From: Eutypella sp. D-1
Lineage: Eukaryota; Ascomycota; Sordariomycetes; Xylariales; Diatrypaceae
NCBI GenBank assembly: GCA_023313575.1
Contig: JAJTTP010000037.1
Coordinates: 1-64,000, forward strand
Direction: 5' to 3'
DNA length: 64,000 nt
The translations under genes were made by a program, and so were the position numbers. The notes below the pieces were generated by a model. The model saw nothing but the letters and a program-made list of their open reading frames with translations. It was not told the DNA's origin and searched no databases. Shown piece by piece: positions 47,989 through 64,000 of this stretch; the first letter of the stretch is position 1, and the number at the start of each line of letters is the position of its first letter.

Positions 47989-49452
47989 ATGCAATCGTTT
48001 ATTGAAACCCTCGTTGCCCAGCTAACTTTGGGTGCTGACCCCGTACGCGGCTCCCTGAACCAAGTAGGGCTTTTGCAGACATCAGACAGGCTGCGGCTTG
48101 TGTCAACGAGGCTAAGAGAGGCGTCTTCCATTGGATTTACGGTTGTAAAAGAATTCAAGGATCTAGCTCCTGCTTCGGAAAAACGCCCACGGAGGAAAAG
48201 GCGGCCAAAGAAAAAGCCCACGCCTTCAGAAGATGATTCTGTTCCGAGAAACGTTCAAGCAGACACTCAAGGCGCTGAGCCAGAAGGGACCAAGCCAGAC
48301 CTGAGGCGTCCAAAGGTTATCATGTCGAACGAAAAGAAGGCAAAAGGACTTGCTGTCGGAGCAACTAAGCCAACAAGCCTCGCACACCATCGCATGGTCT
48401 TCTACACGGACGGATCCACCCATACGAAAGAGGCGATCCATGGAGCCGCCGTTACCTACAAATGCTTCCCCGCCGAGCCGAAGGATATGCTCTGGCATGA
48501 TGAATCGTATGGGATCTTCGGCACTCACATTATCGACACCGCCGAGATGCTTGCCATCACCTGCGCTCTGAAGATTGCTCTGCGCGAGGCGCCTCGTTAT
48601 AGTCAAAGGAGGCGAAAGGGAGTGTACGGTTTTGGTGTCTTCATATTCACTGATTCTCAGACTTCACTAAGTAGTATTCGTGACTACCTCTCTAGTGACA
48701 AGAAACCTTCGGTGCGAGAAGCATTCCTTTGCAAGCAACCGTCTGCCGAGATACCGGGTCTCCTCGACAGCCTTTACGAGGCAAGGGCCAAGGTCGAATT
48801 TCACTGGGTCCCCGGCCATTCGGGGGTCATCGGTAACACCCGCGCGGATAGGCTCGCCAAAGACGCTGTCGAGGCTGCCAGGCCGATAATGGCGTGCCAC
48901 CAGGTTCCGCCGCACGGCAGGGACTTCGAGATCATATCGGTCAAGGATATGGTTGCGGAGAGAATTGAAATGGAGAAGGATCAAAAGCGCGACCAGATGG
49001 AGGGCACGGTGGCGTCATTATTGCATCAGGGCAAGTCGCCCGCCGATATATTGGCACTCGTGGACCAGATCAAGATGCTCTTAGAGAGAGCTGCTCTCAA
49101 CCAGTCCCCACAGCACCAAACCCCGGGGCCCCTGCCCGAGGCCAGCAGCGATACACTGGCGAGAACCGCCTCCGAAGAGTCCGTGGTTGCGGAGCGAGCT
49201 GTTCCTAACCAGCCTTTGCAGCACCAGATCCCGGAGTCGCTGCCCGAGACCTGCAGTGACACACTGGTGGAAACCACCTCGAAAGAGTCCGTGGTTATGG
49301 AATACGCACCAAAGCTGGAGCTCGTAGAGCCGTGCTCCATGGAATCGCCAAGACGTAGTCGGGGGAAACAGATCGTCGTTAGCCTCAAGAAACCATTTCG
49401 GCGGGTTGGCAGGGGTCTTAGGAAATGGCGCAAGATTGAGGATGGGGAATAG
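47989..49452 (+). CDS. Stand-alone RNase H-fold protein (possibly domesticated from a retroelement)
   Basis: A single 487-codon frame. The N-terminal 80 residues end in a very basic block (RPRRKRRPKKKP), a likely nuclear signal. The RNase H domain runs from about residue 133 to 295. It has all four catalytic acids: D141 in FYTDGS, E186 in TAEMLAI, D222 in FTDSQTSL, and D287 in RADRLAKDA, preceded by the WVPGHSGVIGN loop. The tail (residues about 365-440) contains two copies of a roughly 36-residue repeat (NQ..QHQ.P..LPE..SDTL..T..ESVV). The motif set is that of the RNase H at the end of LINE-type polyproteins, but no reverse transcriptase lies upstream and the gene shows no RIP damage. It may be a captured, functional enzyme cleaving RNA in RNA:DNA hybrids. 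Alternatively it is a recent remnant of an unRIPped element. Confidence 0.8.
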   Translation: MQSFIETLVAQLTLGADPVRGSLNQVGLLQTSDRLRLVSTRLREASSIGFTVVKEFKDLAPASEKRPRRKRRPKKKPTPSEDDSVPRNVQADTQGAEPEGTKPDLRRPKVIMSNEKKAKGLAVGATKPTSLAHHRMVFYTDGSTHTKEAIHGAAVTYKCFPAEPKDMLWHDESYGIFGTHIIDTAEMLAITCALKIALREAPRYSQRRRKGVYGFGVFIFTDSQTSLSSIRDYLSSDKKPSVREAFLCKQPSAEIPGLLDSLYEARAKVEFHWVPGHSGVIGNTRADRLAKDAVEAARPIMACHQVPPHGRDFEIISVKDMVAERIEMEKDQKRDQMEGTVASLLHQGKSPADILALVDQIKMLLERAALNQSPQHQTPGPLPEASSDTLARTASEESVVAERAVPNQPLQHQIPESLPETCSDTLVETTSKESVVMEYAPKLELVEPCSMESPRRSRGKQIVVSLKKPFRRVGRGLRKWRKIEDGE

Positions 49453-55051: not shown

Positions 55052-57117
55052 ATGCCTATCTCGACTCCTAGCCCGGACCGCTTCGTGCCCGTCCGTGGCA
55101 CGCTCCCTGTCGGAGATCGCTTCCGTGCTATCAAGCACCCCCGAGAACTCTCTAGTTCCGAACGCATATCCCGCACGGATAGCTCGGCCCCCGACGCCTT
55201 CATCTCCACTACCCGCCGAGCCGCGATGTTTACCCCCAGCTCCCGCAGAGCCTCACGCTCCGATGGCGTGGACCGCCGAGCAGGTACGTCGTGGAAGAAT
55301 TGCACTCCAGAAACTAAGTGAACCCCAGAGCGTGATGGAGTCGGTGAGCTAACTAACTATCATCTGTCCGAGAAAGGCACAACCATCGCCGTAGGCTGTG
55401 GTCCCCACACGTGTGGCCTAGAGCGCCAGGTAAGCCAGGGCGCTGTCTAGTCCGTCGGCGGCTTGGCACCTGGGGGGTCCGCCGTCGATGCTGGTAGGGG
55501 CCGGCTCTTCAGTCCCGGCACGAACGCCCGCCTCTACATGACTTCCTTCTCTACTCAGCGACCCAAGTCCGAGGAGGAGCAGGAGCAGCACGAGGGTCGA
55601 CTAGCCCTAGCCCTGAAGATGGACCGGGTCCAACGTGTCCTTGACTTCGACGGCTTCTCGACTTTCCCGCGCTGCAAGGGGAATTCTCCCCTCCGGTCCC
55701 GCTTAGATGTTTCCCGGACAACGTGGAATGGCACCGAATGGAGCAACGATGACTGCGCCCCGAAGTCACGGAAAGAGAGTCGAGCTCTCCCAAACGCTCC
55801 TTTCAAGTATGTTCTTCGCTTTGATCGCCCCTGGTTGGATGATAAGCTCTTCCTGTGCAGGCACTAACGCGACATAGGGTCCTCGACGCGCCTGGTCTTC
55901 GGGACGACTTCTACTGCTCCGTCATGGCATACGACCCCAACTGCAACACGCTCGCGGTGGGCCTCGGCAGTCTTCTGTACGGCTGGTCTGAGACCTCTGG
56001 GGTGTCCCTCATCAACGCGGGCGTCGGTGATGGCTCGTGGCTGACGTCAGTGGCGTTCTCTTCGGAGCAGGGGGAGAAGTCGATTCTGGCCTTCGGCCGA
56101 TCCAACGGGCGACTCTCCCTGATGTCACTTTTTGAGCAACTCCTCCCTCGATTCGACACACAACAGACAGTTCCGGTAGCTTGTCTCAGCTGGCGCCCAA
56201 GCCCGACGCGCCGCGCCTCCCTGAATCCGCTGAGTGGGGGCGCATCGGTCCAGACCGAAGGGCTCCTTGTGGGTGACGAGCAGGGTGACCTCTATTACTA
56301 TTCAGTCGAGTGGCCGGACCCCTAGGAGGTAAACCGGCACAACTGGCGAGGGGCAATGACGCTCCTCGCACATGTGAAAGTGCACACACAACAAATTTGC
56401 GGCCTTTCATGGTCGCCCACTGGGGAACAGTTCGCGACAGGCGGCAACGATAACGTATGCTGCCTATTCGACCTAAAAACAATAGATGACACGGACAGGA
56501 GCGGTGGTGGGAGCAATGGCCCGCAACCTACACCAGCCCTCAAGCGCCTCCCCGCAGGTTCCGAAAAGCACCGGTGGCAGCACGGCGCGGCCGTCAAGGC
56601 AATTGCGTTCTGCCCGTGGCGCGAGGGCCTGGTCGCCACGGGCGGCGGATCCAACGACAAATGCATACACTTCTTCCACGCGTCGTCGGGGGCGGCGCTG
56701 GCGACGATCTCGGTGGCGGCGCAGGTAACCTCCCTCATCTGGAGCACGACGCGGCGGGAGATCGTGGCGACGTTCGGGTACGCGCAACCGGACCACCCGT
56801 ACCGAATCGCGGTGTTCAGCTGGCCCGACTGCCGACAGGTGGCGGCGATTCCGTGGGAGGGCGACCACCGCGCCCTCTACGCCATCGCGTACCCCGGCGG
56901 TCCCAGCGACACGTACCGCACGCGCAAGCGGCTGCGCAGCCGCACCGCCGTCGAGGGCTGCATCGTCGTGGCCAGCAGCGACGAGAGCGTCAAGTTTCAC
57001 GAGGTCTGGACCGCCGGCCGCAAGGCCACTACCGGCCTCGACAGCGGCCTCCTCGCCGGCAGCGATATCCTCGAGATGACCGAGGGCATCGATAAGGAGG
57101 GCGATGTGATACGCTGA
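55052..57117 (+). CDS. AMA1: Meiosis-specific APC/C activator Ama1 (Cdc20/Fizzy family) with two in-frame TAG codons
   Basis: Three exons (55052-55283, 55377-55806, 55878-57117) form one phase-correct frame of 634 codons. Near the start is a C-box-like PDRFVPVR. Codons 77-140 have TTIAVGCGPHTCGLERQ, then the region around codon 102, then GRLFSPGTNARLY. The propeller begins VLDAPGLRDDFYCS, with LAVGLGSLLYGW, CLSWRP, HTQQICGLSWSPTGEQFATGGND and KAIAFCPWREGLVATGGG. The protein ends in Ile-Arg, the APC/C-binding tail. Codons 102 (55448-55450) and 370 (56323-56325) are TAG, where relatives have Trp (GAV-W-SVGG and DP-W-EV). No other stop or frameshift exists. The family directs the APC/C during meiosis and ascospore formation. 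Full-length protein needs both UAGs read as UGG, as A-to-I editing would do. Without editing only a 101-residue fragment is made. Confidence 0.88.
55434..55467 (+). promoter_or_regulatory. Predicted RNA hairpin presenting UAG codon 102 in its loop
   Basis: GCCAGG (55434-55439) pairs with CTTGGC (55462-55467, one G-U). A single G-G mismatch follows, then CGCTG (55441-55445) pairs with CGGCG (55456-55460, one G-U). The 10-nt loop 55446-55455 (TCTAGTCCGT) holds the stop codon, with the candidate edited A at 55449 preceded by U. Read by eye; the folding was not computed. Confidence 0.6.
56310..56340 (+). promoter_or_regulatory. Predicted RNA hairpin presenting UAG codon 370 in its loop
   Basis: GCCGG (56313-56317) pairs with CCGGC (56334-56338), or, with one bulge, GTG and CCGG pair with CCGG and CAC. 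Inside, ACC (56318-56320) pairs with GGT (56328-56330) and C22-G26 closes a three-base loop that is the TAG itself (A at 56324, preceded by U). The inner stem is short with one mismatch and a bulged AAA. Confidence 0.5.
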
Positions 57118-57743: not shown

Positions 57744-57768
57744 CCCCCCCCCCCCCCCCCCCCCCCCC
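57744..57768. repeat. 25-base poly-C tract
   Basis: Uninterrupted C run read directly. Its length may be affected by sequencing slippage. Confidence 0.85.
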
Positions 57769-62459: not shown

Positions 62460-64000
62460 TGTTGTTATTTACTCCTGTCTGCGCGCTCGTGGTAGTGGGT
62501 GTTGGCGTAGTATGTATGTGTCGCCGTGTTGTCATGTGAGGCTAGGTAGATTGTAGAAGCGTCGGCTAGGCTGTAGTGTACGTCCCTATTTTCGTCGACA
62601 CTAGGTATCTTCAGCTTCGTAGCCTAGTTAGATAAGAGTGCCTAATAGGTTAGCCCACCGTTGTCTCCTAGGCTGTCCACCTTGCACTAGTCGACTCCTT
62701 GTTGCGGACTGGACTATTCACCCGGGCCCTTCTGCTGGTTCTGGGATAATATGGAAAGATTGGAAGGTACGATACGAAAGTCATGTCCTCCACCTTGGAA
62801 CCCGTAGTTAGGGAGAGAGGTCCCGAAGGAAGCAGCCTTCATTCCTCCTTTTCGCAGGTCTTACCTACCCATGCCATGTACTAAGGAGATGCAAGGCTCT
62901 CTTTTTCAAGGATTCCACTTTGCCGGGACATTTCAGTTCAAATCGAGTCTTCCCATCGACTACTACGATAGTCGTCTGCGGGAGGATTATTCCATTGTTC
63001 TGTGGCAGCGCACCTACTACACTAATGGTTCACTATAATAGACAGTATATCCAGTAGGTAGATAAGACATCAAATACTTGGCCAACGCCTGTCTACACAT
63101 GATGCATGGGTACTCTTGTGAAATGAAAAGAAAAGACCCGAGTGGTTATGGACACAGACAACATTTTGCTTCTAGGCATTCGCGCGGAGATGTAAGATGA
63201 CTCATGAAGATGAGTCACCATCACCATATATACACCCATGTCTCTCACACGCTACTTGCTGCAAGCAGATAGGGGGGGCGAGAAAGCCAAGTGAGCACTT
63301 CACCGAGTTCAGAAGATCAAGATAATAGGTTTAGGTAGTTTAGGAATCGTATATTGGCCTATAGAAGTCAAAGAGTACTAGGCCTGGGCTTCGGGGGCTC
63401 CCTCCTACTGATATATCCTGGCGATCACTGGACATAGCCCCCCCCCCCCCCCCCGCTCCCCCCCGCTCTGCTATGTGCGATCCTCCTTGATATGTAATAG
63501 CTTCACCAGAGTAAGGCTTAACTAACTGTGATAATCCTCCATGCATTGGGCCTGGGCCTACCACGGTCAATAGTAAATCTTGATATTACGCCGGCAGCAC
63601 GAAGCCAATTTGATTGGCTAATAGAGAGCTCTTTGCATATTGATCTTCTGGGCTGTCACTAGCATGGCTCGGTATTTGTTCGTTCTCGGGTATGGGCAAG
63701 AGGATAAGACCAAGGCTTTGTCTTTGCAACAAGCCGACAAACCCTCTTTGTAATCGACGAAGCCCAAGGCACGGTTTCGGCAATGGCACAACAAAGCAAA
63801 TTGCCATTATGGACGTGGAAACGGAACGAAATGTGAGATTTATTGCGCAGTAGCGGTTGCTAGCGGGTTTGCGGCTGAATCCCCTGCAGCAGAATAGGAT
63901 GAAGTCGTCGTAGCTTTGTAAAATATATACGGGACTATCGATCAAGTGAAAGCACCCGTAGACGTGAGAAGGCCAGGGCGCAACCAAGACAACGAATTTG
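62460..64000. other. Right-end region, no gene supported
   Basis: About 1.5 kb with a C run at about 63436-63454 and ACTAGGTA/GTAGGTAGATA motifs. A 133-codon minus frame (63586-63987) reaches close to the window end and might be part of a gene lying mostly outside, but I recognise no domain in it. Confidence 0.4.

What the first reader, a model, noticed from the sequence alone, without database searches (positions are those of the whole stretch)
55052..57117. AMA1 is interrupted only by two UAG codons, both at expected Trp positions: candidate for obligatory A-to-I mRNA editing
Seen: a 634-codon, three-exon frame with correct phases, conserved from C-box to Ile-Arg tail, containing two stops, both TAG, in contexts GAV-stop-SVGG and DP-stop-EV where family members have Trp. 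Known: in Sordariomycetes such as Fusarium and Neurospora, A-to-I editing in sexual tissue turns UAG into UGG in meiotic genes that look like pseudogenes, and I recall reports of edited stop codons and stage-specific splicing for F. graminearum AMA1. Inference: this copy is functional and makes full-length Ama1 only in the sexual stage, so a standard annotation would split it or call it a pseudogene.
Basis: partly seen in the sequence, partly recalled or inferred. Interest (0 to 1): 0.95.

Follow-up and report, generated by a model that had tools for sequence, protein, structure and literature searches.

The report
Meiosis gene with two editable stops
A fungal gene for a meiosis regulator carries two stop codons exactly where the protein should have tryptophan, most likely because the cell rewrites them in its RNA during sexual reproduction; the gene was already known to be edited in Fusarium, but here the stops seem to sit at other tryptophans, and one of them seems to recur in many related fungi.

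Summary
AMA1 at 55052-57117 is a single-copy, three-exon, 633-codon frame whose only internal stops are TAG at codons 102 and 370, where relatives mostly have Trp. A-to-I editing of both UAGs is the best explanation (about 0.85); no RNA was seen. Support: (1) a stop at 370 looks widespread in Xylariales: 22 truncated records (19 distinct ends) stop exactly before it, and 47 of 63 listed Xylariales proteins lack it, against 0 of 51 Leotiomycetes and Sordariales/Coniochaetales. (2) Gene models break at 102 in 5 of 5 Monosporascus. (3) Both A's sit in predicted hairpin loops, as only 3 of 37 UA sites robustly do; site 370 matches all six preferred bases. (4) Tad2-, Tad3- and Ame1-family genes are present. 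AMA1 editing is published for Fusarium graminearum. New here is the place: most Fusarium models break at another Trp, 275, and AMA1 shows stop signatures at five Trp codons across Sordariomycetes. Against: a 99% identical relative has Trp at 370.

The parts
55052..55283 (+). AMA1 exon 1: N-terminus with C-box-like DRFVPVR (motif name recalled)
   Evidence: translation; Xylariales homologues begin alike (MPIxSPDRFVPFR)
55284..55376 (+). intron 1, 93 nt, GTACGT...AAAG, branch sites CTAAC
55377..55806 (+). AMA1 exon 2, holds the first in-frame stop
55448..55450 (+). in-frame TAG at codon 102 (A at 55449); Trp in 111 of 120 listed homologues; A in a predicted 6-nt hairpin loop; context C-U-A-G-U-C-C
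55430..55558 (+). possible alternative intron (129 nt, in frame) that would remove stop 1; no CTRAY branch site
   Evidence: considered, not favoured
55807..55877 (+). intron 2, 71 nt, GTATGT...ATAG, branch site CTAAC
55878..57117 (+). AMA1 exon 3: WD40 region and Ile-Arg tail, stop TGA
   Evidence: Slp1, Cdc20 and Cdh1 structures are relatives
56323..56325 (+). in-frame TAG at codon 370 (A at 56324); Trp in 70 of the 73 listed homologues with a residue there; A in a predicted 7-nt hairpin loop; all six preferred bases C-U-A-G-G-A-G
56269..56325 (+). possible alternative intron (57 nt, GTGGGT...CTAG, in frame) of the kind 18 Xylariales annotations use to skip residues 352-370; no CTRAY branch site
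   Evidence: considered, not favoured

Best explanation
This is a functional AMA1 gene, encoding the meiosis-specific activator of the anaphase-promoting complex, that is kept locked at the DNA level by two UAG codons. In sexual tissue the tRNA-type deaminase Tad2-Tad3 with its cofactor Ame1 converts the middle A of each UAG to inosine, which ribosomes read as UGG (Trp), and full-length Ama1 is made. Without editing, translation stops at codon 102, before the WD40 region, or at codon 370, part-way through it. Shown here: the two stops, their Trp positions, cis features typical of fungal editing sites, signs of the same stops in relatives, and candidate deaminase genes. Inferred: that editing happens, its stage, its level, and the function of the product.
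For: (a) Single-copy gene, correct phases, no frameshift, only TAG stops, both at Trp columns. (b) Stop at 370 in relatives: of 213 protein records collected, 29 end inside the family alignment and 25 of those end right before a Trp column, 22 of them before 370; the 22 have 19 distinct ends and come from Hypomontagnella, Daldinia, Hypoxylon, Anthostomella, Parahypoxylon, a Xylariaceae strain and unnamed contigs. (c) Of the 120 best listed homologues, 47 of 63 Xylariales lack residue 370, against 0 of 37 Leotiomycetes and 0 of 14 Sordariales/Coniochaetales; in the 162-protein alignment 30 deletions end exactly at 370. Small introns falsely set to splice out a conserved edited stop, and models that end at it, are described for CHE1 in Fusarium (passages of PMC11169179). 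(d) Monosporascus gene models break at 102 in 5 of 5. (e) No relaxed constraint after the last stop: over 371-633 this protein is 70.6% identical to ten Leotiomycetes, above each of 12 Xylariales with Trp at 370 (66.7-69.2%). (f) Cis features: site 370 has all six preferred bases of the F. graminearum motif, the best score of the 16 Trp-column codons; site 102 has three, plus a +2 U that is neither preferred nor depleted. Both A's are in hairpin loops in at least 7 of 8 flank sizes, as only 3 of 37 UA sites (those at least 100 nt from the CDS ends) are (P of both 0.0045), and in the full-CDS fold. (g) Tad2-like (L009) and Tad3-like (L012) deaminase motifs and DUF726 matches at four loci in the same genome. 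(h) F. graminearum AMA1 is itself a published edited gene.
Against: No RNA, no reads. P0010, an unnamed record 99% identical here, has Trp at 370; it starts inside intron 2, so it is probably genomic, which would mean that a close relative lacks this stop. 16 of the 63 Xylariales have Trp at 370. Between the stops (103-369) this protein is 57.4% identical to Leotiomycetes, slightly below all 12 Trp-bearing Xylariales (58.3-60.3%). Site 102 has the depleted base C at +3 and +4, and among the 63 Xylariales its stop is inferred only in the five Monosporascus models. Site 370 falls in a stem with 75-nt flanks, and loop placement is common at 30-nt flanks (15 of 37 UA sites). The relatives' stops are inferred from protein records; their codons were not read. 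Most annotated deletions (140 of 191) do not end at a Trp column, and three Lachnellula proteins (Leotiomycetes, where such editing has not been found) also lack a stretch flush with Trp547, so the signature is not specific on its own. None of the four DUF726 loci shows a plain MV pair about 30 residues before the presumed catalytic Ser (eye count), the pair reported as critical in F. graminearum Ame1; the count is sensitive to indels, and I do not know which copy is Ame1.
Confidence: 0.85

Rival explanations
1. Alternative splicing removes the stops: TAG serves as a 3' splice site (or lies in a retained intron), and a shorter in-frame Ama1 is the main product, with or without editing of the unspliced form.
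For: In-frame candidate introns exist at 55430-55558 (129 nt) and 56269-56325 (57 nt, ending at the TAG). 18 Xylariales annotations share the same 352-370 skip. Combined splicing and editing is published for FgBUD14. In this genome TAG often marks a 3' splice site in kinase genes, as judged by eye.
Against: Both genuine introns have GTAYGT donors and CTAAC branch sites; the stop-skipping candidates have other donors and no CTRAY branch site. Starts vary among species while the end stays fixed at the Trp (six distinct starts for end 370), as for annotation artefacts. The removed stretch is conserved WD40 sequence.
Confidence: 0.07
2. Recent pseudogene, decayed by chance or by RIP (repeat-induced C-to-T change, which from general knowledge can also make TAG from TGG).
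For: P0010 shows Trp at 370 in a very close relative. Segment 103-369 is slightly less conserved than in 12 relatives.
Against: RIP indices of the gene are not raised (TpA/ApT 0.78; (CpA+TpG)/(ApC+GpT) 0.98; window 0.92 and 1.09). 20 Gln codons (13 CAG, 7 CAA), also RIP-prone, are intact. Single copy. GC3 rises rather than decays downstream (0.68, 0.72, 0.81). Segment 371-633 is more conserved than in 12 Trp-bearing relatives. Stops at the same codons are inferred in other genera.
Confidence: 0.04
3. Sequencing or assembly error (true codons TGG).
For: P0010 has Trp at 370. I could not see reads.
Against: Two independent errors would have to hit exactly the two Trp codons at which gene models break in Monosporascus, and 370 also in other Xylariales.
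Confidence: 0.03
4. UAG is read through by the ribosome or a suppressor tRNA without RNA editing.
For: Would also keep the stops tolerable.
Against: Two of seven window ORFs checked end in TAG (ORFs, not verified genes), which speaks against reassignment of UAG. Readthrough gives no reason for TAG rather than TGA at Trp codons (argument from general knowledge). Fungal editing of this gene is already known. The tRNAs of the whole genome were not scanned.
Confidence: 0.01

Closest known systems
FgAMA1 (FGRRES_10728), Fusarium graminearum
   Same: Same gene; UAG-to-UGG editing during sexual reproduction is needed for full-length protein, and the gene matters for ascosporogenesis (passages of PMC4817773, PMC9499528, PMC11156358; Hao 2019 itself not read)
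   Different: Fusarium annotations mostly break at the codon equivalent to Trp275 (four proteins flush with it, two more spanning it), which is TGG here; here the stops are at 102 and 370
PUK1 of F. graminearum, N. crassa and F. verticillioides
   Same: Pseudogene-like ORF rescued by UAG-to-UGG editing; annotation invents an intron; orthologues differ in which of two codons is UAG (passages of PMC4817773)
   Different: A kinase, with tandem stops in F. graminearum; here two stops lie 268 codons apart in a WD40 protein
FgBUD14 and CHE1 (premature-stop-correction genes)
   Same: TAG in mid-ORF corrected by editing; for CHE1 also hairpin loop, conservation among Fusarium species and misannotation by small introns or truncation (passages)
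   Different: FgBUD14 combines editing with alternative splicing; CHE1 is edited in hyphae

Membership tests
AMA1 / Cdc20-Fizzy APC activator | WD40 region related to Cdc20/Cdh1, C-box-like N-terminus, Ile-Arg tail, closest to annotated AMA1 rather than Cdc20 or Cdh1 | tested here: met
   Slp1, Cdc20 and Cdh1 are the top solved relatives; homologues include Bcama1 and proteins named AMA1; Cdc20- and Cdh1-like paralogues lie elsewhere in the genome
Premature-stop-correction (restorative editing) genes of Sordariomycetes | In-frame UAG at a codon where orthologues encode Trp | tested here: met
Premature-stop-correction (restorative editing) genes of Sordariomycetes | U at -1, preferred flanks, A in a hairpin loop | tested here: met
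   site 370 fully on bases (stem at one of eight flank sizes), site 102 in a loop at all eight but with depleted +3 and +4 bases
Premature-stop-correction (restorative editing) genes of Sordariomycetes | Coding constraint continues downstream of the stop | tested here: met
   Protein identities by segment, (371-633 clearly; 103-369 slightly below 12 relatives); dN/dS could not be computed because no relative's DNA was found
Premature-stop-correction (restorative editing) genes of Sordariomycetes | A-to-G in RNA from sexual tissue, genomic A | not testable with these tools
   No RNA or reads available
Fungal A-to-I editing machinery in this genome | Tad2, Tad3 and a Sordariomycete-type Ame1 (DUF726 with MV at the Tad3 interface) | tested here: inconclusive
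   Tad2-like and Tad3-like motifs and four DUF726 loci found; which copy is Ame1 and its MV residues not resolved

The most novel reading that the evidence does not exclude
AMA1 is a recurrent editing lock: across Sordariomycetes, stop codons have arisen in this one meiotic gene at different Trp codons in different lineages (102 in Diatrypaceae and possibly the Fusarium solani group, 275 in other Fusarium, 326 in Colletotrichum, 370 in much of Xylariales, 547 in many Xylariales), with repeated loss and gain. If so, what is selected is a locked AMA1 outside sexual tissue, whichever Trp carries the lock.
Probability: 0.55. Interest if true: 0.78.

Novelty: new member of a known kind. Interest (0 to 1): 0.6.

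Why it matters
[quoted passage not shown] A stop that recurs at one Trp across much of Xylariales, with other lineages breaking the same gene at other Trp codons, would make it testable whether such stops are kept by selection (a stage lock on a meiotic cell-cycle activator) or are neutral debris tolerated by editing. In practice, most of the listed Xylariales AMA1 models (47 of 63) appear wrong: they lack part of the WD40 region around codon 370.

Tried and rejected
RIP decay: indices not raised, Gln codons intact. Global UAG reassignment: TAG ends two of seven neighbouring ORFs. A second intact AMA1 copy: none found in the genome. Other edited genes as controls in this genome: 17 of the 146 listed kinase matches hold an in-frame TAG (122 of 220 candidates scored); 16 of these were fetched and read. 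By eye their TAGs look like 3' splice sites, so no PUK1-like control was obtained. The SPO22 match (edited gene in F. graminearum) has no stop in its matched stretch, which neither helps nor hurts. DNA of relatives for codon identity and dN/dS: none in the prokaryotic or viral contig collections. Ame1 assignment by the MV pair: not resolved. Rfam and tRNA scans of the window: nothing. In one search the loop control left out the 75-nt flank at which site 370 is in a stem; one search repeats it with all eight flank sizes, and only those numbers are used. The null model (13 of 101 distinct deletion types end at a Trp column against 2.9 expected) ignores relatedness and exon structure and is only a guide. 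In one search, 21 of 213 proteins could not be placed at their C-terminus and were left out of the count; two of them (P0178, P0194) by eye end in the same motif as the Colletotrichum protein before Trp326. P0170 (Xylaria curta) runs past 370 into other sequence and is among the 21. One search compared this gene with three Xylariales that themselves lack residue 370; one search repeats it with 12 that have Trp.

Full report
What is there. The window is the first 64,000 bases of contig C31 of a 48.5-Mb genome in 72 contigs. AMA1 lies on the + strand at 55052-57117 in three exons with two ordinary introns. The frame has 633 codons plus TGA and is interrupted only at codon 102 (TAG, 55448-55450) and codon 370 (TAG, 56323-56325). 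The best-scoring listed homologue (1272 hits at E <= 0.001, 120 listed) is a Monosporascus protein, and the next ones are mainly Xylaria, Nemania and other Xylariales. Over the 234 residues that align, a Eutypa lata protein is 88% identical; its model starts at exon 3 and lacks nearly all of 295-439 and 540-578. The fungus is therefore a Diatrypaceae-like member of Xylariales; I could not name the species, and the family of Monosporascus and Eutypa is recalled. Solved relatives are Slp1, Cdc20 and Cdh1. The gene is single copy, with Cdc20- and Cdh1-like paralogues on C12 and C4 whose matches show no in-frame stop.

The stops are at Trp positions. Of the 120 listed homologues, 111 have Trp at 102 and 70 have Trp at 370, with 47 lacking the residue at 370. 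The missing residues are informative: in the 162-protein alignment 30 deletions end exactly at 370, as if the gene finder had used the stop codon's own AG as a splice acceptor. In that alignment 191 internal deletions of at least 6 residues were counted; 51 end exactly at a Trp column and 140 do not, many of the latter in variable linkers or at exon borders. Of 63 Xylariales proteins (my assignment from organism names), 47 lack residue 370 and 16 have Trp; among 37 Leotiomycetes and 14 Sordariales/Coniochaetales none lacks it (Fisher p about 1e-18, which ignores relatedness; five unnamed and one Hypocreales protein of the 120 left out). On a tree of 69 tips, parsimony needs nine changes of state at 370, against a mean of 18 with shuffled labels.

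Sign of stops in relatives. A search with the first 251 residues, which by its length filter favours proteins of 138-437 aa, returned 53 proteins. Counting over all 213 proteins collected, 29 end inside the family alignment. Of those, 25 end immediately before a Trp column: 22 before 370 (19 distinct ends), and one each before 275, 326 and 547; four end elsewhere. 163 reach the normal C-terminus, and 21 could not be placed. The 22 include named species (Hypomontagnella monticulosa, Daldinia childiae, Hypoxylon, Anthostomella pinea, Parahypoxylon and a Xylariaceae strain) and unnamed contigs. These are stop codons in DNA or modelled as such, but their identity (TAG, TAA or TGA) is not visible in protein records. 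In Monosporascus all five listed gene models break at 102: two skip up to it, three show Tyr there and skip onwards, as expected from splice sites taken from the sequence around the stop.

Comparison with Fusarium. F. graminearum AMA1 (FGRRES_10728) is one of about 70 genes that need UAG-to-UGG editing during sexual reproduction (passages of PMC4817773 and PMC11156358), and it matters for ascospore formation (passages of PMC9499528, PMC11050156 and PMC12582100). In annotated Fusarium proteins the break is mostly at another codon: four proteins (F. sambucinum, F. verticillioides, F. sarcochroum, F. oxysporum) lack 248-275 flush with Trp275, and F. longipes and F. graminearum lack stretches spanning it. 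By inference the F. graminearum edited codon is the equivalent of Trp275, which is TGG here. Exceptions: three proteins of the F. solani group (grouping recalled) lack a stretch covering 102, and Fusarium sp. NRRL 66182 lacks 368-383, which covers 370. A Colletotrichum fructicola protein ends just before Trp326. Trp547 is missing in 28 of 63 Xylariales, but also in 2 of 37 Leotiomycetes (three Lachnellula proteins in all), a group where this editing has not been found, so that column is the weakest. Together these suggest that AMA1 has been stopped at different Trp codons in different lineages. This is the most novel reading; it rests on protein records and needs the DNA.

Constraint. After the last stop (371-633) this protein is 70.6% identical to ten Leotiomycetes, above each of 12 Xylariales that have Trp at 370 (66.7-69.2%); between the stops (103-369) it is 57.4%, just below all 12 (58.3-60.3%). 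So there is no decay after the second stop and at most a small loss between the two.

Cis features. For F. graminearum the preferred bases are C/U at -2, U at -1, A/G at +1, G at +2, A/G at +3 and +4 (section 6 of PMC9600606). Site 370 is C-U-A-G-G-A-G, six of six, the highest of the 16 Trp-column codons in this CDS; site 102 is C-U-A-G-U-C-C, three of six, with depleted bases at +3 and +4. The A of site 102 is in a 6-nt hairpin loop in eight of eight flank sizes, the A of site 370 in a 7-nt loop in seven of eight (stem with 75-nt flanks); both are in loops in the full-CDS fold. Only 3 of 37 UA sites (at least 100 nt from the CDS ends) reach seven of eight, so drawing both by chance has P 0.0045; with the 30-nt flank alone 15 of 37 sites are in loops.

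Trans factors. The genome has a deaminase with the Tad2-type motif pair HAEL...PCVMC (L009), a Tad3-like YMTHEPCTMC frame (L012) and DUF726 matches at four loci; motif names are from general knowledge. Ame1 is the DUF726 protein that turns Tad2-Tad3 into an mRNA editor in Sordariomycetes (passages of PMC11087585). I could not say which copy is Ame1, and none shows a plain MV pair about 30 residues before the presumed catalytic Ser.

Rivals. Splicing: in-frame candidate introns exist for both stops, but they lack the CTAAC branch sites that both genuine introns have. RIP or decay: indices normal, 20 Gln codons intact, GC3 rising downstream, constraint after the last stop as above. Error: unlikely, given that models break at the same codons in other genera. 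P0010 (unnamed, 416 aa) differs from this gene at three residues besides having Trp at 370 and starts in intron 2, so it is probably genomic DNA of a very close relative; if so the stop at 370 is not fixed among near kin. If it came from unspliced RNA it would instead be an edited copy. I cannot tell.

Novelty. Searches for A-to-I editing with Xylariales, Xylaria, AMA1 with Sordariomycetes, restorative or convergent editing, and Hypoxylon, Diatrypaceae, Monosporascus or Eutypa (open-licence PMC only, top rows listed) showed no report of AMA1 editing in this order. Hao 2019, which describes FgAMA1, is known here only from citations and was not asked for by id; PMC10776026 (cited as Qi 2024), PMC5604002 and PMC11105437 were asked for and are not held, so prior notice there is possible.

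Noticed in passing
P0030, P0105, P0018, P0024, P0034, P0036, P0043: A second recurrent break in Xylariales AMA1 models is flush with Trp547 (533-547), which in the window is TGG with five of six preferred bases; another candidate edited codon in relatives.
   Followed up: partly
P0081, P0083, P0162: Three Lachnellula (Leotiomycetes) AMA1 models lack 542-547, also flush with Trp547; either a natural small intron call or a stop in a class where this editing is not known.
   Followed up: partly
P0188, P0194, P0178: A Colletotrichum fructicola and two unnamed AMA1 proteins end just before Trp326, a further Trp position with a stop signature.
   Followed up: partly
L020 (G000:C45:403438-404328): A DNA methylase domain match in a very long open frame (2273 aa) with one in-frame TAG; could be an intron end or another edited stop.
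   Followed up: no
window 47989-49452: ORF with an RNase H domain (487 aa) upstream of AMA1; role unknown.
   Followed up: no
window 57744-57768: A run of 25 C just downstream of AMA1, a likely slippery or polymorphic tract; another of 17 C at 63438-63454.
   Followed up: no
L003, L004, L005, L006/L007: DUF726 matches at four loci, more than the two copies described for the ancestor of Sordariomycetes and Leotiomycetes.
   Followed up: partly
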